A stretch of DNA of 64,000 bases from Thermococcus sp. (GTDB lineage Archaea > Methanobacteriota_B > Thermococci > Thermococcales > Thermococcaceae). The translations under genes were made by a program, and so were the position numbers. The notes below the pieces were generated by a model. It was not told where the DNA came from. It ran no database searches and saw only the letters and a program-made list of their open reading frames with translations. The stretch spans positions 1 to 64,000 of the forward strand of contig NZ_JALXBJ010000025.1 of NCBI RefSeq assembly GCF_026991495.1, read 5' to 3'. Positions 3,716-53,456 of this stretch are shown one piece after another (position 1 is the stretch's first letter; each line of letters begins with the position of its first letter).

Positions 3716-5615
3716 ACCAGAAACGCCTTAGATGGAGCCTCATCTTGGTCAAATCAACGGCCCTCATCGTCTCGACCATCCAGTCGGGCAGGTCCTTCCT
3801 CACGCTCCTCCAGAGGACGCGGTAGTCGAGGATAACTATGCTCCCCCTCTCCTCGGCCGAGCGGTGAACCCTTCCGGCTGCTTGAACCAGCTTCCTGTGA
3901 GCCGGCAGGTAATAGCCGTAGTAACGGCCCTTCCCCGGGAACTTCTTTTCGAAGTACCTTATCTGGGCCTGAACCCTTGGGGTTGGCCTCGCGTAGGGTA
4001 TCCCGACGAGGATCACCCCGTTCATCTCGTCCCCGCTGTAGTCCTGTCCCTCGCTGTTCCTCCCACCCATGACCCCGAGGAGGACAGCACCGTTGGCCTT
4101 TGCATGAGCCTTGAACTGGGCAACCAAAAGATCGTTTTCTCTGGAGGACGCGCCCTGCTTCTCGACGAAGACGGCCTTTCCAGTCTCCTCAATGCGAACC
4201 TTCAGGTTTGTCGAGAGAAGCCCCTGCAGAACCTCGTAAGAAGCTGCAAAAACCCCGACGTTTTTTGGAATCATCTTTACCGCCTCGACTATGTAGTCCG
4301 CCATCTTCCGGTAGAGTGCCAGGGAGCGCTCATCTCCTCTCGTCGAGACGTCTTTGGCAACCAAAACCTGTGCGTTTTCCCTCTTTACCATCCTCGGAAA
4401 CTTCTTGAGGCGGGCCTTCTCAATGCCCATAACGTCGCGGAAGGCCTCAAGCGGTGTGAGTGTGCCGGAGGTGAAGACAGCTGAGTGCGTCTCCCTCAGG
4501 AAGGTGAGGGCCTTTGATGGGTCGAGGGCGACGAGCTCAAGGCTTAGACCGCGCTCCCTCGTGAGAAGGAAGAGGTAGTCGTCCCTGCCGATGAGGGAAA
4601 ACCAGAGGAGAAGGAACTCGCCAGTTCTGCCGACGTAGGAGCGCGGTGGCTTCCCCTTCTCTATTCTGTCCTCCCTTATGGCATCGCCGACGGCGACCAT
4701 CTCGTTCAGGGTCTTGACGAGCCATCTCGGCGTTAAGCTGAGAACCTCGATGACGTGGGAGAAGGCCTCTTCTGGCATTATGGGAACTTCATCGGTTTCC
4801 CTCTCGGCGAGCTTCTCCCGGTAGAGTATCTCAAGCCCCCTGCCGAATATGCTGAGGAAGTTCGCTATTTCGTGCTCGTTGTACTCTTCAGCTTCCTTGA
4901 TGGCCCTGTTCACGGCGTTTATGCTCAGCCTGTCGCTGAGAGCTGAGATAGCCTGATCAGGAAGGTTGTGGGCCTCGTCGAAGACCACTATCAGGTCGGA
5001 GTAGTCGATGCCCAGCGAGCTCATCAGGCTCTCCCTTATGCTTGGGTTGAGGGCGTACAGGTAGCTCGCCACTATAACGTCGGCCTTCTCGGCTATCTTC
5101 CTCGTCAGGTCGTAGGGGCAGAGTTCGAGGGTTTCCGCGTAGCTCAGTATCTCGGCCGGATGGCTCGGCTCCTGAAGGAAGAAGCGGACTAACTCATCAA
5201 ACTCGGCCTTCTTCTTTTTCTCGTTCTCGTAAAAGGGGCACTTCCCGAGCTTCTTCAGGTTCTTGCAGACGACCATAGCTGTGTAGGCGTCGCTCGTGTA
5301 CTCCCTCAGATAGCTGTGGAGGCAGAGCTCCTTCCGGCTCCTCAGCTCGACACCGGAAACGGGGTTCTTGGCGTTTATCGCCTTCAGCTCCTCTATAACG
5401 CGGTCCATCTGCCTGTGCGTCCTCGCGAGGTAGAGAACCTTGAGGCCGAGCTCTTTGGCAACGGGGAGAGCTCCGGCCAGGACGCCTATCGTCTTCCCGA
5501 AGCCGGTTGGCGCTTCGATTATGGCGTTCTCTCCCCTCTCGGCAGATTTCCTAACGAGCTCGATGAACTCAAGCTGGTGCTCCCTTGGTTCGTAGGGGAA
5601 GTAGTCACCCGTCAT
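3702..5615 (-). CDS. XPD/Rad3-family (DinG-like) iron-sulfur DNA helicase
   Basis: A 637-residue superfamily 2 DNA helicase of the XPD/Rad3 type. Walker A reads EAPTGFGKT (about residues 33-41) and the Walker B/DEAH box reads VVFDEAHNLP. Four cysteines between the two motifs (in ELCLHSY, VVCKNLKKLGKC and ELCPYD) match the 4Fe-4S domain of XPD. Helicase motif VI is QAAGRVHRSAEERG near the C-terminus. Known XPD proteins unwind 5' to 3' in nucleotide excision repair; the archaeal role is less clear. The gene is transcribed alone and overlaps the 3' end of the convergent 120-aa gene by 14 nt. Confidence 0.93.
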   Translation of the reverse strand: MTGDYFPYEPREHQLEFIELVRKSAERGENAIIEAPTGFGKTIGVLAGALPVAKELGLKVLYLARTHRQMDRVIEELKAINAKNPVSGVELRSRKELCLHSYLREYTSDAYTAMVVCKNLKKLGKCPFYENEKKKKAEFDELVRFFLQEPSHPAEILSYAETLELCPYDLTRKIAEKADVIVASYLYALNPSIRESLMSSLGIDYSDLIVVFDEAHNLPDQAISALSDRLSINAVNRAIKEAEEYNEHEIANFLSIFGRGLEILYREKLAERETDEVPIMPEEAFSHVIEVLSLTPRWLVKTLNEMVAVGDAIREDRIEKGKPPRSYVGRTGEFLLLWFSLIGRDDYLFLLTRERGLSLELVALDPSKALTFLRETHSAVFTSGTLTPLEAFRDVMGIEKARLKKFPRMVKRENAQVLVAKDVSTRGDERSLALYRKMADYIVEAVKMIPKNVGVFAASYEVLQGLLSTNLKVRIEETGKAVFVEKQGASSRENDLLVAQFKAHAKANGAVLLGVMGGRNSEGQDYSGDEMNGVILVGIPYARPTPRVQAQIRYFEKKFPGKGRYYGYYLPAHRKLVQAAGRVHRSAEERGSIVILDYRVLWRSVRKDLPDWMVETMRAVDLTKMRLHLRRFWSKGL

Positions 5616-6081: not shown

Positions 6082-7143
<1,062 letters not shown>

Positions 7144-11911: not shown

Positions 11912-11924
11912 GGAGGTGCTCGCC

Positions 11925-12590
11925 TTGCACATCCCCGACGGCTACCTCGGTCCCTACACCTTCGGCTTTTTTTACGCAGTTATGATACCGATATGGTACA
12001 GGGCGTTTAAGTGGCTCAAGAAGCTCAGACCCCAGCAGGTTCCGCTGCTCGGCGTCCTGACGGCCTTCGCTTTCCTCGTTATGATGTACAACATGCCGGT
12101 TCCCGGCGGGACAACGGCCCACATAGTTGGGGGCACGATAATAGCCGTACTCATAGACCCCTGGGCAGCGACAGTTGCCCTCACGATAGTCCTCCTGATC
12201 CAGGCGCTCTTCTTCGGCGACGGGGGTATAACTGCATACGCCGCAAACGTCTTCAACATGGGGGTCGTCCTGCCCTTCGTCGGCTACTACACATACAGGT
12301 TCCTCAACCGGAAGCTCGGCCTGAGCGAGGTTCTCTCATCGGGCATCGGCGCCTACGTTGGGATAGTCACCGCGGCAACGGTAGCTGGGATAGAGCTCGG
12401 GATACAGCCGTACATACAGCCCGGCTACTGCCCCTACAAGCTGAGCGTTTCGGTTCCGGCGATGGCTATAGCACACCTCGTAACGGCGGGCCCGGCCGCA
12501 GCAGTGGTCACGGCCGCCGTCGTCTGGTACGTGAAGAAGAGCAGGCCAGACCTCTTCGAGATGAGGACGATCATGAAGAGCAGGGGGTGA
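11925..12590 (+). CDS. Nickel/cobalt ECF transporter, substrate-binding component NikM/CbiM
   Basis: A 221-residue membrane protein of the CbiM/NikM family, with about six or seven membrane segments. The start is the TTG at 11925, giving Met-His-Ile-Pro-Asp-Gly, because the family needs a free N-terminal Met-His for metal chelation, and GGAGGTG sits 6 nt upstream; the GTG at 11916 lies inside that ribosome-binding site. Conserved segments include VPGGTTAHIVGG, ALFFGDGGITAYAANVFNMG and YCPYKLSVSVPAMAIAHL. It captures Ni2+ or Co2+ outside the membrane and works with the next three genes. Metal specificity cannot be decided here. Confidence 0.94.
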   Translation: MHIPDGYLGPYTFGFFYAVMIPIWYRAFKWLKKLRPQQVPLLGVLTAFAFLVMMYNMPVPGGTTAHIVGGTIIAVLIDPWAATVALTIVLLIQALFFGDGGITAYAANVFNMGVVLPFVGYYTYRFLNRKLGLSEVLSSGIGAYVGIVTAATVAGIELGIQPYIQPGYCPYKLSVSVPAMAIAHLVTAGPAAAVVTAAVVWYVKKSRPDLFEMRTIMKSRG

Positions 12591-12594
12591 GTGG

Positions 12595-12930
12595 ATGGAC
12601 AGGCTCACCAAGACCCTACTGGTAGTAGTCGCCGCCCTGATAATCCTCTCGCCGATAGGGATACTCCTCGTGTGGAACTACAGCGACGCCTGGGGCGAGT
12701 GGGACGTCTCCACCGTGGAGCACATGGTAGGGCAGAAACTGCCCGGAATGGAGAAGCTCGCCAACTCCTGGAACCACGCGGTTCTCCCGGACTACAACGT
12801 CCCCGGCTGGGAGGACAAGCTCCACGCCTCAATAGGCTACATAATCTCTGCCGTGGTGGGGGTTGCGGTTGTACTGGCCGTCTACTACATACTCGTCCGC
12901 CTTGCGGCCGGGAGAGGCCCGGCCTCCTGA
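12595..12930 (+). CDS. Nickel/cobalt transporter auxiliary subunit (NikN/CbiN/PDGLE-like)
   Basis: A 111-residue protein with two membrane segments (about residues 7-27 and 82-103) and an external loop of about 55 residues rich in Trp and aromatic residues. This topology is that of CbiN/NikN small components of nickel/cobalt ECF transporters. Position confirms it: 4 nt after the M-component and directly before the T-component. The ATG at 12595 follows GGGGGTGAGTGG. CbiN-like proteins help load metal onto the M-component. Confidence 0.82.
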   Translation: MDRLTKTLLVVVAALIILSPIGILLVWNYSDAWGEWDVSTVEHMVGQKLPGMEKLANSWNHAVLPDYNVPGWEDKLHASIGYIISAVVGVAVVLAVYYILVRLAAGRGPAS

Positions 12931-12950
12931 GGCTTTTTTTGGTGATCCCC

Positions 12951-13769
12951 ATGGGCTTCCTTGAATCAACCGCCCGGGAGGTCCTTGAGTTCACGACGGA
13001 AGCCGTCTTTTCCGAGAGGTACGCGAGGGCCGAAGGCCTCCTCCAGGGTTTAGACCCACGGGTTAAGCTGGTCTCCCTCTTCACCCTTGTCACAGCAGTC
13101 GTGATGCTTAAATCAATGGGGGCGCTCCTCGTGTTCTACACAATCCCCTTGGCTTTGGCCGTCGCATCGGGGGTAAACCCGCTCGCGTTCGTCAAGAGGG
13201 TCTGGCTCTTCATCCCCCTCTTCACCGGCGTGATAGCCCTCCCATCGATCTTCATGATACCTGGCAAGGAGCTCTTCACGGTTCCCATACTGGGATGGGG
13301 CGCAACGAGGGAAGGCGTTTACTGGGCGACCCTCTTCACCCTCCGCGTCGCGACGGCGGTCTCGTACGCCATCCTGTTCACGATGACGACGAGGTGGAAC
13401 GACGTTGTATCAGCCCTCTCCAGCCTCCGGGTTCCCGGCATGGTGATAACGATAACAACCCTCGCCTACCGCTACCTCTTCCTGCTCGCGAAGCTCCTCC
13501 TCGACGCCATGCACGCGAGGAGGGCGAGGCTCGCCGGCGACCTCGGGATGGTCGAGAGCTGGAAGGAGGCGGGAAAGCATATAGGGGCTACGTTCATAAA
13601 GGCCAACGCCTTAGGCGAGGAGGTCTACTACGCCATGCTCTCAAGGGGGTACGACAACGAAGTCGTAAACCAGTCCGATCTCCATTTCAGCGGAGCCGAC
13701 TACGCGGCCTCCGCGGCGACCGTCCTGCTCGTGCTCCTCGCCTTCCTGTTAGAGAGGGGGTTGCCATGA
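12951..13769 (+). CDS. cbiQ: ECF transporter transmembrane component (CbiQ/EcfT)
   Basis: A 272-residue T-component with about five membrane segments. Family signatures are LDPRVKLVSLF near the N-terminus and the coupling-helix Ala-Arg-Arg region (HARRARL); a second coupling motif is AMLSRGYD. It couples the ATPase to the M-component. The start is the ATG at 12951 with GGTGAT 4 nt upstream; longer open frame upstream only shadows the previous genes. Its TGA overlaps the ATG of the ATPase gene. Confidence 0.93.
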   Translation: MGFLESTAREVLEFTTEAVFSERYARAEGLLQGLDPRVKLVSLFTLVTAVVMLKSMGALLVFYTIPLALAVASGVNPLAFVKRVWLFIPLFTGVIALPSIFMIPGKELFTVPILGWGATREGVYWATLFTLRVATAVSYAILFTMTTRWNDVVSALSSLRVPGMVITITTLAYRYLFLLAKLLLDAMHARRARLAGDLGMVESWKEAGKHIGATFIKANALGEEVYYAMLSRGYDNEVVNQSDLHFSGADYAASAATVLLVLLAFLLERGLP

Positions 13770-14569
13770 ACGTCTACGAACTCAGGGGGGTTTCCTACAG
13801 GTACCCGACCGGGAGCTGGGCCCTGAAAGGGGTGGACATGAGGGTTGAGAGGGGTGAAACGCTCGCGATAGTCGGGCCCAACGGTGCCGGAAAGACGACT
13901 CTCCTCAAGATAATGGACGCCCTCGTAATGCCGACCGAGGGGGAGGTGTTCTTCGAAGGGGAGCCCGTAACCGAGGAGACGATGACCGACCGCGGGTTCC
14001 GGCGGAAGGTCGGCTTCCTCTTCCAGAGCCCGGACGTCATGCTCTTCAGCGCGACGGTCTTGGAGGACGTGGCCTTCGGGCCGGTTCACCTCTGGGGAAA
14101 AGAAAAGGGCCTTGAAAAGGCCAGAGAAGCCTTAAAGCTCCTCGGGATAGAGAACCTCGCCGACAGGCATCCCTACAGCCTCAGCGGAGGAGAGAAGAAG
14201 AAGGCCTCGATAGCGGCTGTGCTCTCGATGGAGCCGGAGGTTCTCCTTCTCGACGAGCCGACGCGGGATCTGGACCTGAGAAACAGGAACTTCGTCCTGG
14301 AAATGATAAAGCGCTGGAAGAGAGAGGGGAAGACCGTGGTGGTGGTCAGCCACGACCTAAGGCTGATTCGCCTCGCGGACAGGGTCTACGTCATCAATGG
14401 GGAGGTGCTCTTCGAGGGGACCCCGGGGGAGCTTTTCTCAAGGCCAGAGCTGGTAGAGAGAGCGAACCTCGACGTCCCGGAGATAGTCAGGCTCTTCCAC
14501 CGGCTGGGAATCGAAGAGGTGCCGATGAGCGTCGAGGAGGCGGCTGAGATACTGAAGAGGAGGTGCTAA
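13766..14569 (+). CDS. cbiO: ECF transporter ATP-binding protein (CbiO/EcfA)
   Basis: A 267-residue ABC ATPase. Walker A is GPNGAGKTT (about residues 35-43), the Q-loop is FLFQSPDVMLF with the energy-coupling-type acidic residue, the signature is SLSGGEKKK, Walker B is VLLLDEPT followed by DLDLRN, and the switch His is in VSHDL. The C-terminal extension is typical of CbiO. It overlaps the T-component gene by 4 nt and powers the M-N-T-A transporter. The 3' end overlaps the convergent ABC ATPase gene by 4 nt. Confidence 0.94.
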   Translation: MNVYELRGVSYRYPTGSWALKGVDMRVERGETLAIVGPNGAGKTTLLKIMDALVMPTEGEVFFEGEPVTEETMTDRGFRRKVGFLFQSPDVMLFSATVLEDVAFGPVHLWGKEKGLEKAREALKLLGIENLADRHPYSLSGGEKKKASIAAVLSMEPEVLLLDEPTRDLDLRNRNFVLEMIKRWKREGKTVVVVSHDLRLIRLADRVYVINGEVLFEGTPGELFSRPELVERANLDVPEIVRLFHRLGIEEVPMSVEEAAEILKRRC

Positions 14570-15252
14570 GACTCCAGCTTGAGCCTGAAGAGCCTCTCAA
14601 CCTCCCCCCTGACCTCATCCACCTCCCCGCTAAGGACGAGCTTTCCACTCGCGATGACGTAGACCCTATCGACCACCGGGAGGAGGGGCTCCCAGATGTG
14701 GCTGATTATCACGAAACTCCTCTTCCCGCGCTCCTCTTTGAGGAGTTTTACAAACCTCCCCATGCTCTCAAAGTCCAGGTTCGCCAGCGGCTCGTCTATC
14801 ATGACCAGCTCTGGATCTCCGACGAAAGCCTGGGCCACCGCGAGCTTCTTCAGCATCCCGGAGGAGTAGTTCTTGGTGATCTCATCGAGGAAGTCCAGCC
14901 CGAAGAGCTTTGCAACCCTCTCGACCTCTTCCATACCATAGCCCTTCGACCTCGCTATGAACTCAAGCCACTCCCTCCCGGAGATGAGGGGAGGGAAGGA
15001 GACCGGGTCGTAGGCCACCCCAATTCTCATCTTCACAGCGGCGTCCCTCCAGGGGTCCTTTCCCATGAGCCTTATCCTCCCGGAGGTCGGCCTGTAGACG
15101 CCGGTGGCGAGCTTGAAAAACGTGCTCTTCCCGCCGCCGTTCGGGCCGAGGATAAGGTTCGTGCCCTCTGGAATCTCAACCGTAACCCCGTCGAGGGCCT
15201 TTATGCTCCCAAAGCGCTTGATAAGGTTCTCTGCCTCTATCAACTCCACCAC
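14566..15252 (-). CDS. ABC-2 exporter ATPase (secreted-protein locus 1)
   Basis: A 228-residue ABC ATPase of the ABC-2 export (CcmA/NatA) type. Walker A is GPNGGGKST (about residues 36-44), the signature is NYSSGMLKK, Walker B is LVMIDEPLANLD, and the switch is IISHIWE. It is the last gene of an operon that reads secreted protein, anchored ectodomain protein, permease, two-TM protein, ATPase. It starts with a GTG at 15252, overlapping the preceding small membrane gene by 13 nt, so the two are coupled. The substrate is unknown; genomic context points to a peptide or protein. Confidence 0.92.
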   Translation of the reverse strand: MVELIEAENLIKRFGSIKALDGVTVEIPEGTNLILGPNGGGKSTFFKLATGVYRPTSGRIRLMGKDPWRDAAVKMRIGVAYDPVSFPPLISGREWLEFIARSKGYGMEEVERVAKLFGLDFLDEITKNYSSGMLKKLAVAQAFVGDPELVMIDEPLANLDFESMGRFVKLLKEERGKRSFVIISHIWEPLLPVVDRVYVIASGKLVLSGEVDEVRGEVERLFRLKLES

Positions 15253-15686
15253 CTCCAGAGGAGAAAGGCGAGGAGAACTGACAGCACTCCAACTGAAACC
15301 CAGAGGACGCCCTGGGTTCTTGAGGTTGGGTAGAGCTCCGAGATGTAACCCGAACAGAACATACTGCCGTTTGTGTAAAGTGAGTAGGTGCCTTCATGGG
15401 GGATCACAACAACCCTGCTAACGTGGGGTTCAACGGGGATATCCAAAAGATTTCTGCCCGAAAGCTGATCCTTCAGCAGAAGGCTTCCCCTACCGTTGCA
15501 GGAGATGTTGAGGAGAGCCCATCCCGGGGAATGGAAGGGGATGTAGCTGAGCCTTCCGCTTTCCAGCTGGATCTTTCCCGGCCCGATGTAGCCCCGCACA
15601 TGCTCGTTGGCCCTGTAGGCCGCCAAAAACGACATCAGCATCAGGATCATAATAACCAGGAGACCGATTAAAAAGCGGTGCCTCAT
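15240..15686 (-). CDS. Two-TM protein with exposed Cys-containing domain (locus 1)
   Basis: A 148-residue protein with an N-terminal membrane segment (about residues 5-23) and a C-terminal one (about 125-145). The intervening domain of about 100 residues is beta-rich and holds two cysteines (ISCNG and FCSGYIS) that could form an external disulfide. It lies between the permease and ATPase genes and overlaps both. A similar-sized, similar-topology protein sits at 53094-53456 beside the second exporter locus. No family is recognised; a receptor, immunity or accessory role is inference. Confidence 0.8.
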   Translation of the reverse strand: MRHRFLIGLLVIMILMLMSFLAAYRANEHVRGYIGPGKIQLESGRLSYIPFHSPGWALLNISCNGRGSLLLKDQLSGRNLLDIPVEPHVSRVVVIPHEGTYSLYTNGSMFCSGYISELYPTSRTQGVLWVSVGVLSVLLAFLLWRWWS

Positions 15687-16450
15687 ACAACATCCCCCCT
15701 GAGGAATACGACGAGGGAAAGCAGCAGGAGGGTGATTGGAAGGGCGAGCCCGGCGGCAGCGTTCGCAGGCGAGAAGGGAGTGCCCCCGTTGAGGACAGCA
15801 GTGAAGCCCTCAACGAAGGAGAAGGGGGGTAACATTAGGGATGAGAAGTAGGGAACCACCGTAACGAAAAATGCCGCTAAAAACGAGAGGAACATGTTCT
15901 TAAAGAGCACACCGAAGAGAACCGAAACCGACAGCACAAAGAACACGAAGTAGAAGGTGAGGACGAGCTCGTAGAGGAAGGTAGTACTCCCCAAAAGGGA
16001 CCAGAGCACGGGGGAGAGGTCGGCGTTCAGGAAAACCGCAACGGCGATGAGGGGGAATATAGATGCAAGAACGGCAAATACGAGGGTGGAGGCAACCTTT
16101 GAGAGGTATATCCCAAGCTTCGAGTAGGGGAGGGAATAGAGCGAGAGGGCATAGCCCCTGTCCCTGTCGTACCTGAAGGTCAGCACCGAGATCACAGACG
16201 TGAACAGGGACAGGAGGATCCAAAAACCCGGGACAAGACTCGGATACACAAAGAGCCAGTGGGCACTCATGCTCGACGTTGCAGTGGACGGGGAGAAGGT
16301 GGGGGGTTCGTTTCCGTGAATAAGCGCGAGGCCCGCCATGGAGTGAAGGTAGCCCGCGGCCAAGAGGTATGAGAGGACGGGAACCGTAATCACGGCAACT
16401 AAAACCTTCAGGGGATCGCCGACCTCCCAGGAAATTAAATTCCCTTTCAT
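15683..16450 (-). CDS. ABC-2 type permease (locus 1)
   Basis: A 255-residue integral membrane protein with about six membrane segments, consistent with an ABC-2 permease. It has a short cytosolic N-terminus, a conserved-looking RYDRDRGYALSLYSLPYSK coupling loop between segments 2 and 3, and a final TM ending VVFLRGDVV. It overlaps its upstream neighbour by 4 nt (ATGA type) and its downstream neighbour by 4 nt. It should pair with the ATPase at 14566 to export a substrate, probably linked to the secreted protein encoded at the head of the operon. Confidence 0.86.
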   Translation of the reverse strand: MKGNLISWEVGDPLKVLVAVITVPVLSYLLAAGYLHSMAGLALIHGNEPPTFSPSTATSSMSAHWLFVYPSLVPGFWILLSLFTSVISVLTFRYDRDRGYALSLYSLPYSKLGIYLSKVASTLVFAVLASIFPLIAVAVFLNADLSPVLWSLLGSTTFLYELVLTFYFVFFVLSVSVLFGVLFKNMFLSFLAAFFVTVVPYFSSLMLPPFSFVEGFTAVLNGGTPFSPANAAAGLALPITLLLLSLVVFLRGDVV

Positions 16451-17499
16451 GCCTTACCCCTCCTCCACAGCAGCAGGCCCGCTATTACGACGGCAGTTAA
16501 TCCCCCGACCCCAACCAGCCAGTACCTGGATGACGGCCTGGGCTCGTAGACGGGAGCGGGGGCTTCAGAAGAGGTTCCGGCCGTTTTTGGAACCTTTAGG
16601 GAATACAGCATGACCCCAACTGCGGGGTATTTGCTTATTGAGAAATGGGCGCCCTCCTTTGAGATCTCATTAAAGTACTTATTCGTGAGGCTATCCACGG
16701 CGATGAGCATCTTAACTCCGATGGCTTCCAAATCCGGTATAAACCCAAACATACCGGAGGTCACATCGTTGCCGGGATTGAAATTGAGGACGGTTCTACC
16801 GGTTGCGTTTCCCCCGAGCGTCATTACGCTCACAGGGGGGTACTTTATGAATAGGTTTGGGGGAGTAAAGTCGCGGTAGTAGGTTACGTGGGTTATGTTC
16901 ACCCTCCTCATTGTTTCGGGCAGGTATGGTTTTCCGTTTATGACTACGGGGAGCTCCTCCTTGTTTGAAATGTAGAGCCCGAAGAGGAGAGTATGGCCGT
17001 AGTAAGTACCGTTGAGCGAGTAAACCGAACCGTTCGTGAGCACCAATTTATACTCCCCTGAAACGGTGAGGTTTTTGTAGAGGTCGTCCTCAAGCCTCTT
17101 CCCCCTCGGCGAAAACGGGGTGGAGTTGATCAGCGGACCGGGCAGGGGCTTACATGATGCCGGGCGGACCACGTTGACGTAGGAAAACGGCCTGCGAAGT
17201 ACGGGATTTCCCAGGAAAAGGAGCGTTACGTTGACGTAGGCCGTGTTCTCCGTCACCCGCTGGACCCTGAACTTCACAAAGATCTGCTGGAAGCCAATGG
17301 AGTATGCGCATTTACCGTGTACATACTCCACACTTCCTCCCCATGCATACGTTTTAGCCGGGGTTGCATTGGCGTAGTATTCCAATGTGGTGCCGCTTTT
17401 AAACCAGTAGGGTACGGTAGCAGTCCCGACAGCTCCGGAGGCCAGAGGGAGCAGCAGGGTCAGCAGGGCGATTGCACTCAAAAAGAAAAGGGACTTCAT
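16447..17499 (-). CDS. Membrane-anchored ectodomain protein (locus 1)
   Basis: A 350-residue protein with an N-terminal signal peptide (about residues 1-22, ending LASGAVG), a long extracellular domain with many Asn-x-Ser/Thr sites, and a C-terminal membrane anchor (WLVGVGGLTAVVIAGLLLW) followed by RRGKA. There are three cysteines in the first third. No family is recognised. The start ATG has GGAGGTG 6 nt upstream. It lies 17 nt after the small secreted protein gene and overlaps the permease gene. The protein at 50698-51591 has the same place and build in locus 2. Confidence 0.84.
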   Translation of the reverse strand: MKSLFFLSAIALLTLLLPLASGAVGTATVPYWFKSGTTLEYYANATPAKTYAWGGSVEYVHGKCAYSIGFQQIFVKFRVQRVTENTAYVNVTLLFLGNPVLRRPFSYVNVVRPASCKPLPGPLINSTPFSPRGKRLEDDLYKNLTVSGEYKLVLTNGSVYSLNGTYYGHTLLFGLYISNKEELPVVINGKPYLPETMRRVNITHVTYYRDFTPPNLFIKYPPVSVMTLGGNATGRTVLNFNPGNDVTSGMFGFIPDLEAIGVKMLIAVDSLTNKYFNEISKEGAHFSISKYPAVGVMLYSLKVPKTAGTSSEAPAPVYEPRPSSRYWLVGVGGLTAVVIAGLLLWRRGKA

Positions 17500-17516
17500 C
17501 GGAGCACCTCCTGAAA

Positions 17517-17919
17517 TTAAATCGAATTGGGCGGAATGCCTACTGAAGCAATAACCCCGAAATAGGCGCCCATAACGTCTCCGTATGCAATGGTTTCGAC
17601 AGAGTACAGGGTATTATCAGGGCAGTAACACCACAGATCCCCAAGTCCATATGACCATCCGTAGTGCGTGTCGTCGTACCAGTAGGAAGGAGAGCAGACG
17701 TAGAAGTATGCTGTGGCACTTGCACCGATCCCTCCGAGCAGCGATATACCATTGGTCTCTATATCCTCCCCGTACCATACGCACTTGGAGATCTGCTTGT
17801 AGTGGACATCAGCTGGCTGAGGAGCTGATGCAACGCTTGCCGCTTTTACAATGCCACTCAACAGTCCAGTTGCCACCAGCATTCCCAATAGCCCCCAACA
17901 ACAACTTTCGGTGTTGCAT
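17517..17919 (-). CDS. Small secreted Cys/Tyr-rich protein, signal peptide frameshifted (locus 1)
   Basis: The open frame from the TTG at 17888 (or ATG at 17882) encodes about 120 residues beginning MLVATGLLSGIVKAASVASA. The mature part is rich in Tyr, Trp and Gly, with four cysteines (SKCVW, YVCSP, LWCYC). Upstream, the ATG at 17919 gives MQHRKLLLGAIG, the missing positive and hydrophobic start of the signal peptide, but in another frame. Reading GGG at 17884-17886 as GG would join them into one perfect signal peptide. A TATA-like ACTTTAAATTTATG lies at about 17961-17974. It heads the ABC-2 exporter operon. Function unknown; a bacteriocin-like product is a guess. Confidence 0.7.
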
Positions 17920-46738: not shown

Positions 46739-48448
46739 ATGGGAGAAGCTGATAAGTACGAGATTCTTCAGGATTTGATGAGGAGGAGGGGCTTTGCCTG
46801 GGGGAGCTTTGAAATCTACGGCGGTTCACGCGGATTCTATGACTACGGCCCGCTCGGCGCGACGATAAAGCGCAAAATCGAGAGGAAGATAAGGGAGGCC
46901 TTCCAGAGGGAGGGCTTCTTTGAGGTCGAAACGCCTGACATAACGCCGGAGAAGGTGTTCATAGCCAGCGGTCACGTCGAGAAGTTCGTTGATCCTCTCG
47001 TCGAGTGCAGGAAGTGCGGTGCGAGGTTTAGAGCGGACCACCTCGTTGAAGAGGCCTTAGGAATAGACGCCGAGGGGCTCTCCGCCGAGGAACTTACAAG
47101 GCTCATAAGGGAGAACGGCATAAAGTGTCCCGAGTGCGGCGGAGAGCTTTCGGACGTCTGGTACTTCAACCTCATGTTCGAGACGAGAATCGGCCCCTAC
47201 GGCGACCAGAAGGGCTATCTAAGGCCTGAAACTGCCCAGGGCATGTTCGTTAACTTCAAACGCCTAAACGCCTTCGCGAGGAACAAACTGCCTTTCGGCG
47301 TCTTCCAGATTGGAAAGGCCTACCGCAACGAGATTTCTCCGAGGCAGGGAATGCTCCGCTTGAGGGAGTTCACGCAGGCGGAAGCGGAGATATTCTTCAA
47401 CCCGAAGGAGACAGCTCATCCGCACTTCAAGGAGGTTAAAGACGAAAAGCTTAGGCTCTACCCGATAGAGCACCAGCTCAAGAACCTCGGGGAGATAGAG
47501 CTAACTGCTGGAGAGGCCGTCGAGAAGGGCTACCTGATGAACGCCTTCTTTGCCTACTATCTCGTTATGGTCAAGAGAACCCTCCTCGACATAGGTATTC
47601 CTGAGGACAAGATACGCTTCAGGCAGCAGCTGCCGGAGGAGAGGGCCCACTACTCGCGCGACACCTGGGACGCCGAAATCCACAGTGAGCGCTTCGGCTG
47701 GGTGGAGTGCGTTGGGATAGCCAACCGCGGTGACTACGACCTGAGCAGACACATGCGCGAGAGCGGAGCTGACTTAACAGTTCTCATCCACTACGAGGAA
47801 CCAAAAACCGTGAAGAGACTGGAAGTTTCCCTCAACATGAAGCGCGTCGGTCCAAAGCTCAGGAAAGATGCCAAGAGGATAAACGAAATGATAAAGGGCT
47901 GGAACGAGGAGAAGAAGCGCGAGTTAGCGGAGCTCCTTGAGAAGGAAGGAAAAGTCACCATCGAGGGCTACGAGCTTGAGAAGGACGACTTCATAATCAA
48001 GGAAGTTGAGGAGAAGATAACGGGAGAGAAGATAGTACCCCACGTTTTGGAGCCGAGTTTCGGCATAGACAGGCCCTTCTACCTGCTCCTCGAAAACAGC
48101 CTCGTCATCGAGGAGGACAGGACTTACCTCAAACTCAAGAAGGACATGGCGCCGATAGAGGTTGCTGTGCTTCCTCTAGTTGCCAAGGAGCCTCTCAAGG
48201 GCATAGCCTACGATGTCTTCAGAACCCTCCAGAAGGAGGGCTTTATAGTGGTATACGACGAGAAGGACACGATAGGGAGGCGTTACCTGAGATACGACGA
48301 GATTGGAACTCCATACTGCGTCACCATCGACAACCAGACGCCGGAAGACGGGGCCGTTACGATCCGCGACCGCGACACGAGGGAGCAGGTGAGGGTTAGC
48401 ATTGAAGAGCTGTCCGGCAGGCTGAGGGAGCTGATTTTCGGGAGTTAG
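46739..48448 (+). CDS. glyS: Glycyl-tRNA synthetase
   Basis: A 569-residue class II GlyRS of the archaeal/eukaryotic alpha2 type. N-terminal RRGFAWGSFEIYGGSRGFYDYGPLG, a zinc-ribbon insertion (CRKCG...CPECG), motif 2 AYRNEISPRQGMLRLREFTQAE, motif 3 EPSFGIDRPFYLLL, and a C-terminal anticodon-binding domain. The ATG at 46739 follows GGTGGTGAGCG; a TATA (GGTTTTTATG) lies at about 46699-46708. Its 3' end overlaps the convergent hepT gene by 4 nt. Confidence 0.97.
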   Translation: MGEADKYEILQDLMRRRGFAWGSFEIYGGSRGFYDYGPLGATIKRKIERKIREAFQREGFFEVETPDITPEKVFIASGHVEKFVDPLVECRKCGARFRADHLVEEALGIDAEGLSAEELTRLIRENGIKCPECGGELSDVWYFNLMFETRIGPYGDQKGYLRPETAQGMFVNFKRLNAFARNKLPFGVFQIGKAYRNEISPRQGMLRLREFTQAEAEIFFNPKETAHPHFKEVKDEKLRLYPIEHQLKNLGEIELTAGEAVEKGYLMNAFFAYYLVMVKRTLLDIGIPEDKIRFRQQLPEERAHYSRDTWDAEIHSERFGWVECVGIANRGDYDLSRHMRESGADLTVLIHYEEPKTVKRLEVSLNMKRVGPKLRKDAKRINEMIKGWNEEKKRELAELLEKEGKVTIEGYELEKDDFIIKEVEEKITGEKIVPHVLEPSFGIDRPFYLLLENSLVIEEDRTYLKLKKDMAPIEVAVLPLVAKEPLKGIAYDVFRTLQKEGFIVVYDEKDTIGRRYLRYDEIGTPYCVTIDNQTPEDGAVTIRDRDTREQVRVSIEELSGRLRELIFGS

Positions 48449-48789
48449 CACTCCCTCTCGATGATTTTCTCAATTTCCTCCTTCAATTCTCCAAGCTGAG
48501 AACTCACGATGACCCAGACCACCGAAAGGTCAACACCGAAGTAGTGATGAATGACAACGTTTCTGAGGCCAACGATTCTCCTCCAAGGAACAGAGGGATA
48601 TCTCTCCCTCACCTCGTCTGGAATATTTCTCGCAGCCTCTCCAATAATCTCAAGGTTCCTCAGTACAGCATCAACCGTTTTCCTGTCGTTAACGAAGGTT
48701 TCAAAGGTGTAGCCGCTGGTATACTCTTCTATCCGACTTATGGCCTCTAAGATATCATTCATGAAAAGGCAGGGGTCCCGTTTAGACAT
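48445..48789 (-). CDS. hepT: HepT-type toxin (DUF86, HEPN RNase)
   Basis: A 114-residue HEPN/HepT protein. The catalytic RX4-6H motif is intact as RNVVIHHY, and the N-terminus has the typical DILEAISRIEEYTSGYTFETF. HepT toxins cleave RNA and are neutralised by AMPylation of the nearby Tyr by the cognate MntA nucleotidyltransferase, encoded 8 nt overlapping upstream. The tyrosine of the HHY is where modification would occur. The pair could act in stability or phage defence. Confidence 0.92.
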   Translation of the reverse strand: MSKRDPCLFMNDILEAISRIEEYTSGYTFETFVNDRKTVDAVLRNLEIIGEAARNIPDEVRERYPSVPWRRIVGLRNVVIHHYFGVDLSVVWVIVSSQLGELKEEIEKIIEREC

Positions 48790-49084
48790 AGACCAAATCC
48801 TCCCTAATATGTTCCCACAGCCCTTTTCTGCTCATGGCGGCGTTTTTTGTAATTACGTCCACAGGCAGGCCGAGAAGTTCCTCCAAGTAGTCCCTGAGAT
48901 CGACTATCTCCCACCCGATAGGCCTTTCAAATTCAACGAGTATGTCAACGTCGCTCAGCTCGGTCTCCTCACCCCTTGCATAGGAGCCAAAGATGGCTAT
49001 TGAACTAACCCCGAAGCGTTCCCTGAGCTCTTCCTTGTGCTTCCGGAGAATGGCTTCGATTTCCTCAAGCTTCTTTGTCATCAT
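48782..49084 (-). CDS. mntA: MntA-type nucleotidyltransferase antitoxin
   Basis: A 100-residue minimal nucleotidyltransferase. The active site is FGSYARGEETELSDVDILVEF (GSx10DxD). A C-terminal LPVDVITKNA strand-helix completes the fold. It partners the HepT toxin, overlapping it by 8 nt. The start may be the ATG at 49084 or 49081. A single TATA-like region at 49099-49108 appears to serve this gene and the divergent DUF402 gene. Confidence 0.93.
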   Translation of the reverse strand: MMTKKLEEIEAILRKHKEELRERFGVSSIAIFGSYARGEETELSDVDILVEFERPIGWEIVDLRDYLEELLGLPVDVITKNAAMSRKGLWEHIREDLVYV

Positions 49085-50092: not shown

Positions 50093-50644
50093 ATGAAGAG
50101 GAGAAACTACCTGGCTGCGTTGTTCCTTGGGTTTGTTGTTTTGGGGCTTGTAAGCCCGGCAGTGTCGGCAGGGATACCCGGTAGCGTGACATTAAAGATA
50201 CAGAAAAAAGTCTGGTGGGCTGAGGCACACGTGTACACCACAATTTTTTACAATGTGGAAAGTAACCCCTACGGCTTTGTCGAGTTCGCGCCCCTCGGGG
50301 CACCGTACAACTACATCCACTTTGGAAGCCATTCGGGAACAGCCAGTAACGCGTACTGGAAGTCAGTAACAGCCAGTACCTCAGCGCTAAAGCATTACGC
50401 TTCAGGATGGTGGCACGTTGAAGCACTGGGGTCCTCAAGAGATGGGACTATGCAGATGTGGCTTTACATCGAGTACCAAGACAGCCTTAACCAGGGAGAC
50501 AAAGAGCTTAATGTTGATTATATCGGAGGCACGCCCTATCTTATGGTCAGGTACACCGTTGACAGTTCGGGAGGTAGTGAACTGGCAAATAAGGCCTATG
50601 ACATTGCAATTGGTGCAATAAAGGACTATCTGGTCTCAGCTTGA
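50093..50644 (+). CDS. Secreted aromatic-rich protein (locus 2)
   Basis: A 183-residue protein with a clear signal peptide (MKRRNYLAALFLGFVVLGLV, ending SPAVSAG) and a mature chain of about 157 residues, rich in Trp, Tyr, Ser and Gly (KKVWWAEAHVY, YASGWWHVEALG) and lacking cysteine. No family is recognised. The ATG at 50093 follows CGGGGGGGGCAG, a G-run ribosome-binding site also seen at the locus 1 secreted gene. It is the first gene of locus 2. Confidence 0.82.
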   Translation: MKRRNYLAALFLGFVVLGLVSPAVSAGIPGSVTLKIQKKVWWAEAHVYTTIFYNVESNPYGFVEFAPLGAPYNYIHFGSHSGTASNAYWKSVTASTSALKHYASGWWHVEALGSSRDGTMQMWLYIEYQDSLNQGDKELNVDYIGGTPYLMVRYTVDSSGGSELANKAYDIAIGAIKDYLVSA

Positions 50645-50697
50645 AAGCTCTCTTTATATTTTTAAGGCCCAACTCGATTGACAACAAGGTGATGGGG

Positions 50698-51591
50698 ATG
50701 AGAAGCAAAAGGAAGACCTACACGTTGGCCGGCTTCGTCTTCCTCCTCTTGGCATTCGCCCTCGTCATGTACCCGATAGCGAGCTACTACCTGGGCATTT
50801 ACCTCGGCTCAAATCACAGCATCCGCAAACCAGGCTCATCCTTCACCTACGTGGGGGCCCTCGTTTCCAGGACGTACGTCTACCACTTCGAAGTCCTGGA
50901 GAACGGGAGCTACAACTTCACCGCCATACTCTACCGGGGCGGCCCCGGGTACGGCTACAGCCAGAGCAAGAGCCCGCCAAGGGACTGGAGGTTCCCCTTC
51001 TTCACCAACATGACGAGGGATCAGGTAAAGGAAATCTGCGAGGTCAACATGATACTCCCCAGGAACGACTCCTTGGTTAGGCTCTTCTTCCCAAAAGATG
51101 CCGTTTACCTGCTGAACAGGTCGAGGCCGATTGTAAAGCTTCCTCCCCTTGAAGACCACGGCTACATAAACTGGTACTTCCTCCCCAAGTTCTTAGGTTT
51201 CCCAAGACTCTACGCACCGGAAGGCCTGGAGAGGTTTAACAAAACCCTCGCGGTAAAGCTCAACTCCAGCGAGTACTTTCCGGTGGTTAGATATCTCAAA
51301 GCCAGCGACGGGTACTATATAATTGCCTACAATTCCCATATACCCCAAACCTTTGAGCCGCTCCAGCTCGGGAGGGTCTTCGACCACTGTCTGAACACAT
51401 GGCTTTTGGTCAAGATGTACAACGGGGACTTTCCCCCGATTCTCCTCGTTAACTCCAACGTCCAGCCCCTTTCCCAGGATTGGAAGCAGGCGATCAAGTA
51501 CAGCGCCATACAATACACAGCTCCCGTTGACTTCGTGCTCATCCTCACAGGTGTAATCCTCCTGATCTTAGCCGGGAGGGCGAGGGGATGA
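50698..51591 (+). CDS. Membrane-anchored ectodomain protein (locus 2)
   Basis: About 297 residues (start at the ATG at 50698, or 299 from 50692, GGTGAT just upstream). An N-terminal membrane segment (GFVFLLLAFALVMYPIASYY) and a C-terminal one (FVLILTGVILLILAG) bracket an extracellular domain with several Asn-x-Ser/Thr sites. It resembles in build and gene order the 16447-17499 protein of locus 1, including an early strand pair (YHFEVLENGSYNFTAILYRG here). It overlaps the ATPase gene by 4 nt. Function unknown. Confidence 0.82.
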   Translation: MRSKRKTYTLAGFVFLLLAFALVMYPIASYYLGIYLGSNHSIRKPGSSFTYVGALVSRTYVYHFEVLENGSYNFTAILYRGGPGYGYSQSKSPPRDWRFPFFTNMTRDQVKEICEVNMILPRNDSLVRLFFPKDAVYLLNRSRPIVKLPPLEDHGYINWYFLPKFLGFPRLYAPEGLERFNKTLAVKLNSSEYFPVVRYLKASDGYYIIAYNSHIPQTFEPLQLGRVFDHCLNTWLLVKMYNGDFPPILLVNSNVQPLSQDWKQAIKYSAIQYTAPVDFVLILTGVILLILAGRARG

Positions 51592-52409
51592 GGGTTGAAG
51601 CGGCGAACTTAGGGGTGAACTACGGCAGCGTGTGGGGTGTAAGGGGCGTGACCTTCAAAGTTAAAGCCCAGAGGCTGGCCGTAGTCGGCCACAACGGGAG
51701 CGGAAAGACGACCCTCCTCTCAGTCCTCTCCGGGCTCAGGAAGCCGACCGAAGGAAAGGCAGAGGTAAACGGAGTTGAGCCTTACAGGCGCGGCGATAAG
51801 TGGGTTGCAATAAGGTACTCCTTTGAGAAGCCCCAGTTCAGCGTACCCGTTAAGGTCAGAGACCTCGTGGAGACCCTCCGGGCCAATCCAAACTGCCCGA
51901 AGGTTGATGATCTCGTCGAGGCCCTGGGGATAAGCGGTTTCCTTGACCACAGGCTGGACGGTCTCTCCAGCGGTCAGGCCCAGCTCTGCAACCTCCTGAT
52001 GGCGCTGTCCTGCGATGCCGAACTGGTCATCCTCGACGAGCCAACGGCGCACCTCGACTCCTACAGGGCGGGTCTGGTTGACGACCTCCTCTCCAAAAGG
52101 AAGGGGCTGATAATGGCCACCCACGACCCGGAGGAGGGGGAAGCGGTCGCGGACCACTTCATCATAATGAAGGAGGGAAGGCTCGTGTGGCAGGGCGGCA
52201 GAAGGGAGCTCTTTGCCAACGGCGTCTACGAGGTCACCCTCGTTGACGGAACCTCCGGGGTTCCCCCTGGCATTGAAGTCGTTCACAGCTTCGGGGCCAT
52301 AGTCATAGCGAGGGCGAAAGAGGAGACCCTGAGCGAGCTCTTCAGGAGGGGTTTGATAGCGGGCTTCAAAAGGGCGGGGTTGCGCTATGCTTATGCGGAA
52401 AGCCGTTAA
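51588..52409 (+). CDS. ABC-2 exporter ATPase (locus 2)
   Basis: A 273-residue ABC ATPase. Walker A GHNGSGKTT (about residues 34-42), signature GLSSGQAQL, Walker B LVILDEPTAHLD and switch ATHDPEE. Its C-terminal 70 residues form an extra domain (EVTLVDGTSGVPPGIEV...), longer than in the locus 1 ATPase. The start overlaps the anchored-protein gene (ATGA) and the end overlaps the permease gene by 23 nt. Confidence 0.92.
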   Translation: MRVEAANLGVNYGSVWGVRGVTFKVKAQRLAVVGHNGSGKTTLLSVLSGLRKPTEGKAEVNGVEPYRRGDKWVAIRYSFEKPQFSVPVKVRDLVETLRANPNCPKVDDLVEALGISGFLDHRLDGLSSGQAQLCNLLMALSCDAELVILDEPTAHLDSYRAGLVDDLLSKRKGLIMATHDPEEGEAVADHFIIMKEGRLVWQGGRRELFANGVYEVTLVDGTSGVPPGIEVVHSFGAIVIARAKEETLSELFRRGLIAGFKRAGLRYAYAESR

Positions 52410-53070
52410 GTGGTACCTCCGTGGCCTGTTTCCCCCGGCGGCCACCACGGTGCTCCTCCTGCTCATGCTCTTAGCGGCCGACTCCTCCCTCAACGCGATA
52501 AAGACCGAGGGGCCGAGCCAGTTCATAGCGCTCATGGAGTACATATTCTTCCCCGTCTACGGGGTGCTCATAGGCTCCCACGTTTTCAGGGACTCAAGGA
52601 CGACGATCTTCGAGCTGGGCATCTTCAACGGCCCCAAGACGGTTTTCTTAGCCCGCACGGTCATCGTTGCAATCGGCCTCCTCCCGGGCATGGGAAGCGT
52701 GGCCCTGCTGGCCTGGTGGAAGGGGCATCCCGAGTTCCTCGTGCCGATCCTTCTGAAGGTTCCCCTCTACACGGCCTTCATAGCGGTTCTCGCCGCCTAT
52801 CTCGACTCACTCGCGGGGACGCTGACTCTATTCATCATAGCGTCAGCGGTTCCAATGTCCTTCAGCGTCCTCCTCGGAAGGAGCGGCTCCGGGTCCCCGG
52901 ACGCGCTGATGACGTCCCTTGCCTACGTGTTCTCACCGGTGCTCTGCGTCAGGTACAGGGGGCTTCTTCCGATTGACGGCGCCCACGGCACGGCCCTCGA
53001 TCTTGCCGTCTCAGCCCTGCTCCTCCTCTGGGGCTACTGGGCGTTCTCAAGGAGGGAGTTCTCCCCCTGA
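52387..53070 (+). CDS. ABC-2 type permease (locus 2)
   Basis: A 227-residue integral membrane protein with about six membrane segments: FPPAATTVLLLLMLLA near the N-terminus, VFFPVYGVLIGSHVF-like second, then VIVAIGLLPGMGSVALLAW, and the last LAVSALLLLWGYWAF. The RDSRTTIFELGIFNGPKTVFLAR loop parallels the coupling loop of the locus 1 permease. It starts within the ATPase gene (ATG 52387 or 52393) and completes the exporter. Confidence 0.84.
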   Translation: MLMRKAVKWYLRGLFPPAATTVLLLLMLLAADSSLNAIKTEGPSQFIALMEYIFFPVYGVLIGSHVFRDSRTTIFELGIFNGPKTVFLARTVIVAIGLLPGMGSVALLAWWKGHPEFLVPILLKVPLYTAFIAVLAAYLDSLAGTLTLFIIASAVPMSFSVLLGRSGSGSPDALMTSLAYVFSPVLCVRYRGLLPIDGAHGTALDLAVSALLLLWGYWAFSRREFSP

Positions 53071-53093: not shown

Positions 53094-53456
53094 TCACCTG
53101 TACTTCAGGAAAGCCATGTAGAAAAACGCCCCTCCGGCCAGGGAGAGCCCGCCTGCAAAGGCGAGCAGGTAGCCGGGCCCCTTGTAGCGGATCTCAACGG
53201 TGTAGCAGCCCGTGGAGTTTGAGTAGGTGTACTCCAGGCCCACCTTTCTTAGGATGACCCTGTCCCTCCACGCAACGAAGACGTCCCCTGTGGAGGCCGA
53301 GACCCGGAGGAAGCCGTCGGCAACGTTTACGCGGTAGTCTCCCAGCCTGCCCGATTGCCCCTCGCAGAAAGTTCCCCTCACCGACTGCCCCGGAAGTATG
53401 AGGGCCGCGACCGCGATTAGGATCCCCGCTATTAGAAGGGCCTCTTCAATGTCCAT
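53094..53456 (-). CDS. Two-TM protein with exposed Cys-containing domain (locus 2)
   Basis: A 120-residue protein with an N-terminal membrane segment (ALLIAGILIAVAALILP), a beta-rich middle of about 65 residues with two cysteines (GTFCEGQ and TGCYTVEI), and a C-terminal membrane segment (LLAFAGGLSLAGGAFFYMAF). It matches the size and topology of the 15240-15686 protein in locus 1, but here is transcribed towards the permease gene from its own promoter (TATA-like GAGTTAAAAGC at 53485-53495). Function unknown. Confidence 0.75.
   Translation of the reverse strand: MDIEEALLIAGILIAVAALILPGQSVRGTFCEGQSGRLGDYRVNVADGFLRVSASTGDVFVAWRDRVILRKVGLEYTYSNSTGCYTVEIRYKGPGYLLAFAGGLSLAGGAFFYMAFLKYR

What the first reader, a model, noticed from the sequence alone, without database searches (positions are those of the whole stretch)
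14566..17919. Exporter locus 1: secreted protein, anchored ectodomain protein, ABC-2 exporter, two-TM Cys protein
Five tightly linked genes, overlapping or 17 nt apart, encode a small secreted Tyr/Trp/Cys protein (17517-17919), a signal-peptide-plus-C-anchor protein (16447), an ABC-2 permease (15683), a two-TM protein with an exposed two-Cys domain (15240) and an ATPase (14566). I know no described system with this set. A second, unlinked copy of the same plan lies at 50.1-53.5 kb. The simplest reading is export of, or self-immunity to, a secreted protein (possibly antagonistic to neighbours, bacteriocin-like). Seen: gene order, topology, signal peptides. Inferred: any function.
Basis: partly seen in the sequence, partly recalled or inferred. 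Interest (0 to 1): 0.78.

Follow-up and report, generated by a model that had tools for sequence, protein, structure and literature searches.

The report
Archaeal toxin–immunity cassettes with orphan arrays
The five linked genes are one copy of a widespread, rapidly reshuffled gene cassette of heat-loving archaea whose behaviour in dozens of genomes looks like a secreted weapon paired with a membrane-anchored protector and a shared transporter, apparently undescribed, and in this genome the weapon gene itself seems to be broken.

Summary
The genes are real, except that the small secreted gene (A) is not one reading frame: the ATG at 17919 is out of frame, and close relatives lack one base present here at 17892-17896. 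The cassette A–B–C–D–E (secreted protein, anchored ectodomain protein, ABC-2 permease, two-TM protein, ATPase) recurs across Thermococcaceae, with 1–4 tandem B genes. Every intact A found sits beside a B. Of 111 complete B–C–D–E cassettes, about 65 have an intact A, 12 a broken one and 34 none, yet B, C and E stay under purifying selection without A. In one well-sampled subgroup, A's C-terminal half and the adjacent B are exchanged together (r≈0.85–0.89), independently of C, D and E (r≈0). Ten of 13 downstream Bs match lead Bs that carry their own A in other genomes, not their own lead B. This is the signature of effector–immunity replacement leaving orphan immunity genes. Best reading: A is a Sec-secreted, bacteriocin-like toxin, B its immunity protein, C–D–E a shared immunity transporter. 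Toxicity is untested; ligand–receptor signalling remains possible. No family or structural relative was found for A, B or D. Locus 2 is an independent, non-homologous system with the same logic.

The parts
17517..17888 (-). A1: small Tyr/Trp/Cys-rich protein, remnant or frame-broken ORF; intact relatives have an N-terminal signal peptide and about 107 aa mature
   Evidence: ORF list; relatives at 80-90% identity in G055 and G039, more distant in G050, G047, G043; no Pfam, NCBIfam, PADLOC, PHROG or PDB family
17892..17896 (-). GGGGG run carrying the extra base that puts the ATG (17919) out of frame with A1
   Evidence: direct comparison with L054, L055, L187, L188
17917..17919 (-). probable original ATG of A1, now out of frame
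   Evidence: corresponds to the in-frame ATG of L054 and L055
17964..17973 (-). TATA-like stretch (TTTAAATTTA), possible promoter of the operon
   Evidence: read from the sequence; inference only
16447..17499 (-). B1: signal peptide, about 300 aa all-beta ectodomain, C-terminal TM anchor; proposed cognate immunity protein
   Evidence: family profile in 61/115 phylum genomes, only the 6 Thermococcaceae genera, up to 15 copies per genome; AlphaFold model pLDDT 64, pTM 0.64, beta-rich; no structural match
15683..16450 (-). C1: ABC-2 type permease
   Evidence: Pfam PF12730 E=5e-7; linked to B and D in the cassettes read
15240..15686 (-). D1: two-TM protein with about 85 aa extracytoplasmic domain and two Cys
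   Evidence: family profile in 63/94 order genomes; alignment A2
14566..15252 (-). E1: ABC ATPase subunit
   Evidence: Pfam ABC_tran E=1.3e-18; last gene of the cassette
50093..50644 (+). A2: secreted protein at the head of the second, non-homologous system (locus 2)
   Evidence: found in 8/61 genus genomes; adjacent to B2
50641..51591 (+). B2: membrane-anchored ectodomain protein of locus 2 (likely start 50698)
   Evidence: tandem B2 without A2 in L211, L212, L213
51588..52409 (+). E2: ABC ATPase of locus 2
   Evidence: order A2-B2-E2-C2 conserved
52387..53070 (+). C2: predicted permease (about 5-6 TM) of locus 2

Best explanation
The locus is one member of a Thermococcaceae-specific secreted effector–immunity system. 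A is a small, Sec-secreted protein with a conserved N-terminal half and a hypervariable C-terminal half; it is proposed to be a diffusible, bacteriocin-like toxin aimed at close relatives. B is its cognate immunity protein, anchored on the outer face of the membrane. C-D-E is a shared ABC-2 transporter with a small two-TM ectodomain partner (D) that works with B to protect the membrane or cell surface, for example by expelling or displacing A (compare LanFEG plus LanI, or the lactococcin 972 transporter). New A–B pairs arrive by recombination at the head of the operon; the displaced A is lost while its B stays as an orphan immunity gene, giving tandem B arrays. In the window the cassette has one B, and its A seems frame-broken (or misassembled by one base). 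Shown: gene order, predicted signal peptides and anchors, A always with B, A-less B-C-D-E under purifying selection, joint exchange of the A C-terminus with the adjacent B, and orphan B arrays. Inferred: that A is toxic, that B gives immunity, and how C-D-E acts.
For: (1) Every intact A found by three family profiles over 94 genomes lies next to a B; the two A remnants without B are broken. (2) Of 111 complete B-C-D-E cassettes about 65 have an intact A, 12 a broken A and 34 none recognised (L160 reassigned to intact on inspection). At the ferritin-like-gene site, A-less cassettes are about 390 nt shorter between that gene and B, the size of A. (3) A-less cassettes keep dN/dS near 0.2 in B, C and E (0.21, 0.24, 0.18), against 0.19, 0.20, 0.15 with A. 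(4) In 16 cassettes of one A family, A C-terminal distance correlates with the adjacent B in all three thirds of B (r=0.84, 0.89, 0.85, permutation p about 0.0005) but not with the last B of arrays (-0.12), C (-0.02), D (0.04) or E (-0.03). L073 and L168 share C at 95% but A C-terminus 34% and B (middle third) 29%; L085 and L168 share A C-terminus 96% and B 93% with C only 75%. (5) 10 of 13 downstream Bs in that family are at least 60% identical to a lead B elsewhere and only 32% (median) to their own lead; A C-termini are 74% identical for such lead-lead pairs but 33% for lead-versus-orphan pairs. Kirchberger et al. (PMC5361080) describe the same pattern for V. cholerae T6SS effector replacement leaving orphan immunity arrays. 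(6) A-B modules are repeated in front of one exporter: A-B-A-B-C-D-E (L084), A-B-A-BB-A-B-X-C-D-E (L153). (7) The unrelated locus-2 system shows the same asymmetry: A2-B2-E-C in seven loci, BB-E-C without A2 in three, broken A2 in one.
Against: No toxin domain or known bacteriocin family is detectable in any A family tested. No activity has been measured. Joint exchange of the A C-terminus and first B could partly reflect their physical adjacency in one recombination block. A secreted ligand with an anchored receptor would give some of the same patterns. In the second well-sampled A family (A0) the A C-terminus also correlates with C, D and E (r about 0.7), and only 5 of 11 downstream Bs have a lead match of at least 60%. 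In the window A is broken, so this particular copy can at most act as immunity.
Confidence: 0.6

Rival explanations
1. Ligand–receptor signalling: A is a secreted pheromone-like protein, B its anchored receptor, and C-D-E a transporter that relays or clears the signal; orphan Bs let cells listen to other strains.
For: Specific A–B pairing and joint exchange; B-C-D-E retained without A.
Against: No regulator or signalling domain is part of the cassette; arrays of old receptors with lost ligands are less expected than arrays of old immunity genes; no cytoplasmic signalling part in B or D.
Confidence: 0.13
2. Exporter or assembly system for a surface protein: C-D-E and B export, fold or anchor A on the cell surface (adhesion, self-recognition).
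For: Operon linkage; B and D have large extracytoplasmic domains; hypervariability also fits surface recognition, as proposed for VARTIG (PMC8416519).
Against: A has its own Sec-type signal peptide; B-C-D-E persists under purifying selection where A is missing; old Bs without an A would have no use.
Confidence: 0.15
3. Lipid, glycan or small-molecule transporter in which B and D are substrate-binding partners and A is an accessory secreted protein.
For: ABC-2 transporters often move lipids or glycans (own knowledge); B has a beta-rich ectodomain.
Against: No structural match of the (moderate) B model to lipid-binding folds; copy number from 0 to 15 Bs per genome and head-of-operon swapping are atypical for housekeeping transport.
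Confidence: 0.08

Closest known systems
Lactococcin 972 cluster (lcn972-orf2-orf3)
   Different: No sequence match of any A tested to the Lactococcin_972 Pfam family; extra proteins B and D; tandem orphan Bs; lactococcin 972 binds lipid II (PMC4055356), which archaea lack (own knowledge).
LanFEG plus LanI lantibiotic immunity
   Same: ABC-2 transporter plus a separate surface-anchored protein, here proposed to protect the producer (plan from own knowledge).
   Different: ATPase scores far below the family cut-off (TIGR03740, 93 vs 310 bits); A is not a modified leader peptide and carries a Sec-type signal; D is additional.
T6SS effector–immunity arrays of Vibrio cholerae
   Same: Effector–immunity pair replaced by recombination, old immunity genes kept as orphan arrays (PMC5361080).
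   Different: No injection machine here; A is Sec-secreted; an ABC transporter is part of every complete cassette.
VARTIG module of Thermococcales
   Same: Hypervariable secreted-protein loci in the same order of archaea, proposed to act in conflict or recognition (PMC8416519).
   Different: Large Ig-domain protein as first gene; the paper's text never mentions ABC; different gene set.

Membership tests
ABC-2 type exporter | Permease of the ABC-2 membrane clan | tested here: met
   PF12730 30.3 bits over cut-off 27
ABC-2 type exporter | Linked ABC ATPase | tested here: met
   PF00005 E=1.3e-18, and C-D-E order in nearly all loci read
Lactococcin 972 family | Secreted protein matches PF09683 (Lactococcin_972) | tested here: not met
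   no such hit at E<=1 for nine A proteins of different families, window A1 and A2
Lactococcin 972 family | Beta-sandwich fold of the mature protein | tested here: inconclusive
   AlphaFold model of A1 pLDDT 33, not usable
Lactococcin 972 family | Immunity by the linked ABC transporter | not testable with these tools
   needs expression and inhibition assays
LanFEG lantibiotic immunity transporter | ATPase above the LanF-type model cut-off | tested here: not met
   TIGR03740 93.2 bits, cut-off 309.75
Effector–immunity pair with orphan immunity arrays (as in T6SS) | Effector gene not found without adjacent immunity gene | tested here: met
   intact A always next to B
Effector–immunity pair with orphan immunity arrays (as in T6SS) | Orphan genes resemble immunity genes that are paired elsewhere | tested here: met
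   10/13 in one A family; 5/11 in another
Effector–immunity pair with orphan immunity arrays (as in T6SS) | Effector toxicity neutralised by cognate immunity protein | not testable with these tools
Effector–immunity pair with orphan immunity arrays (as in T6SS) | Delivery by a type VI machine | tested here: not met
   A has a Sec-type signal peptide; no such genes in the cassette
VARTIG | Large Ig-domain protein as first gene | tested here: not met
   first gene is a 110-140 aa protein without Pfam match

The most novel reading that the evidence does not exclude
A previously undescribed class of archaeal diffusible toxin with an ABC-transporter-assisted, membrane-anchored immunity family: several sequence-unrelated toxin families share one immunity and transporter backbone, and immunity genes accumulate as orphan arrays across Thermococcaceae.
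Probability: 0.45. Interest if true: 0.85.

Novelty: new variant of a known kind. Interest (0 to 1): 0.74.

Why it matters
Few archaeal toxins with matching immunity are known, and searches of the paper library found none described for Thermococcales. If right, these model hyperthermophiles carry a large, rapidly exchanged repertoire of secreted antagonists with identifiable cognate protectors, so kin competition in hot vents becomes directly testable by genetics. It would also give a role to three gene families (A, B, D) that have no Pfam or NCBIfam annotation.

Tried and rejected
Lactococcin 972 membership: no Pfam match, and the A1 model is too poor to compare (pLDDT 33). Structure of B: Foldseek TM-scores about 0.2 or below against PDB and viral models, so no fold assignment. 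D as a mannose-binding lectin: weak profile hit to monocot agglutinins, E=0.005, no further support, rejected. Homology of locus 1 and locus 2: not supported. CipA/CipB cold-induced proteins of Pyrococcus as relatives: considered from memory, nothing useful found. Homology between A families: only clusters 3 and 6 link with confidence (84% probability). Structure prediction was limited to sequences from the window and from related-loci loci, so alignments were shallow (9 and 4 sequences). PADLOC and PHROGs gave only generic ATPase or weak hits. D dN/dS values are inflated, because the stop-to-stop fragments overlap C, and were not used.
Full report
What is in the window. On the minus strand, B (16447-17499), C (15683-16450), D (15240-15686) and E (14566-15252) are intact, overlapping genes. 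B has a signal peptide and a C-terminal membrane anchor. C is an ABC-2 permease (PF12730, 30.3 bits over cut-off 27) and E an ABC ATPase. D has two TM segments around a small domain with two cysteines. A, B and D match nothing above curated cut-offs in Pfam or NCBIfam. The small gene A is not a single frame as described: 17517-17919 is 403 nt and the ATG at 17919 is out of frame. Close relatives G055 and G039 have an intact ORF starting MQHRKLLLGLLGMLV, and the window carries one extra base at GGGGG 17892-17896. Whether this is a real frameshift or an assembly error cannot be decided here.

Distribution. A profile of B hits 61 of 115 phylum genomes, all in the six Thermococcaceae genera, with up to 15 copies per genome; none of the 21 genomes outside the order matched. 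A profile of D hits 63 of 94 order genomes. I read about 140 stretches of these genomes. The order is nearly invariant: [A] – B (1 to 4 copies) – C – D – E. In one subgroup a PEGA-domain secreted protein sits between B and C. The window genome has only one such cassette.

A proteins. In front of B there is usually a 110-140 aa protein with a signal peptide. These fall into at least seven sequence families. Only two of them, one being the window's A1 family, are clearly related to each other (hhalign 84%). Alignments of the two best-sampled families show a better conserved first half and a variable second half. None matches Pfam or PDB sequences. A and B can be repeated as modules: A-B-A-B-C-D-E in L084, A-B-A-BB-A-B-X-C-D-E in L153.

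Asymmetric dependence. Profiles of three A families searched through 94 genomes found no intact A without an adjacent B; the only orphans were two broken remnants, L196 and L197. In contrast, of 111 complete B-C-D-E cassettes 64 were scored with intact A, 13 broken and 34 none; on inspection L160 is intact, giving 65/12/34. 'None' means none recognised, so an unknown A family could be missed in some. At the site next to a ferritin-like gene, cassettes without A are about 390 nt shorter between that gene and B, as expected for a clean absence. B, C and E remain under purifying selection in A-less cassettes (median dN/dS 0.21, 0.24, 0.18 against 0.19, 0.20, 0.15 with A).

Pair exchange. For 16 cassettes with the MKKLVAVLFGLL-type A, pairwise distances of the A C-terminal half correlate strongly with the adjacent B (r 0.84, 0.89, 0.85 for its three thirds) but not with the last B in arrays (-0.12), C (-0.02), D (0.04) or E (-0.03). 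Individual cases are striking. L073 and L168 have nearly the same exporter (C 95%) but different A C-terminus (34%) and B (29%, middle third). L085 and L168 have nearly the same A C-terminus and B (96%, 93%) but different exporters (75%). The A C-terminus and its B therefore move together over a stable C-D-E backbone. Physical adjacency contributes to this, so it does not by itself prove functional pairing. In the A0 family the correlation with C, D and E is also high, so the independence shown is specific to the first family.

Orphan arrays. In the same family, 10 of 13 second-to-fourth Bs are at least 60% identical to a lead B elsewhere that carries its own A, while being only 32% (median) identical to their own lead. 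When two lead Bs are at least 60% identical their A C-termini are 74% identical (median); when a lead B resembles an orphan B, the A C-termini of the two arrays are only 33% identical. In the A0 family 5 of 11 downstream Bs behave this way. This matches the replacement of effector–immunity pairs with retention of old immunity genes reported for Vibrio cholerae T6SS (PMC5361080).

Locus 2. The set at 50.1-53.1 kb (A2, B2, ATPase, permease) shows no detectable homology to locus 1 outside the ATPase but the same logic: A2-B2-E-C in seven loci, tandem B2 without A2 in three, and a broken A2 in one. The convergent two-TM gene 53094-53456 was found in only three genomes and is probably not a member.

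Structure. The B model is moderate (pLDDT 64, pTM 0.64; about residues 60-170 above 80), almost all beta outside the terminal helices, with no credible Foldseek match. The A1 model is unusable.

Interpretation. The simplest account is a secreted antagonist (A) with an anchored cognate protector (B) and a shared ABC transporter (C-D-E) for protection, comparable in plan to lactococcin 972, where two genes downstream of the bacteriocin could encode an ABC transporter involved in immunity (PMC4055356). Export of A by C-D-E is less likely, because A has its own Sec-type signal peptide and the transporter outlives A. Toxicity, the target and the mechanism of protection are inferred. Ligand–receptor signalling and surface assembly are the main rivals. 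I found no description of this system in the held library, but one directly relevant survey (Makarova et al. 2019, mBio) was not held, so priority is not established.

Noticed in passing
17892-17919: One extra G relative to close relatives breaks the frame between the likely start codon and the rest of A1; real frameshift or assembly error.
   Followed up: partly
50093-53070: Second cassette (A2-B2-ATPase-permease) without detectable homology to the first outside the ATPase but with the same presence, loss and tandem-B pattern in relatives (L088-L093, L211-L214).
   Followed up: partly
48445-49084: Pair resembling a HEPN (HepT-like) and a nucleotidyltransferase (MntA-like) toxin–antitoxin module, judged from sequence motifs only, about 1 kb upstream of locus 2.
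   Followed up: no
11916-14569: Likely ECF-type cobalt transporter operon (CbiM/N/Q/O-like, judged from sequence), convergent with and abutting cassette 1.
   Followed up: no
L153:8159-9772 and L158:10864-12462: A secreted PEGA-domain protein of about 535 aa sits between B and C in one cassette subgroup.
   Followed up: partly
L176, L177, L178, L185, L186: Weak D-profile matches inside single proteins of about 345 aa without B, C or E nearby; possible distant relatives or chance.
   Followed up: no
L153:2737-3105, 4229-4591, 6691-7143: Three tandem A paralogues in one cassette with near-identical N-terminal halves and diverged C-terminal halves, suggesting segment exchange.
   Followed up: partly
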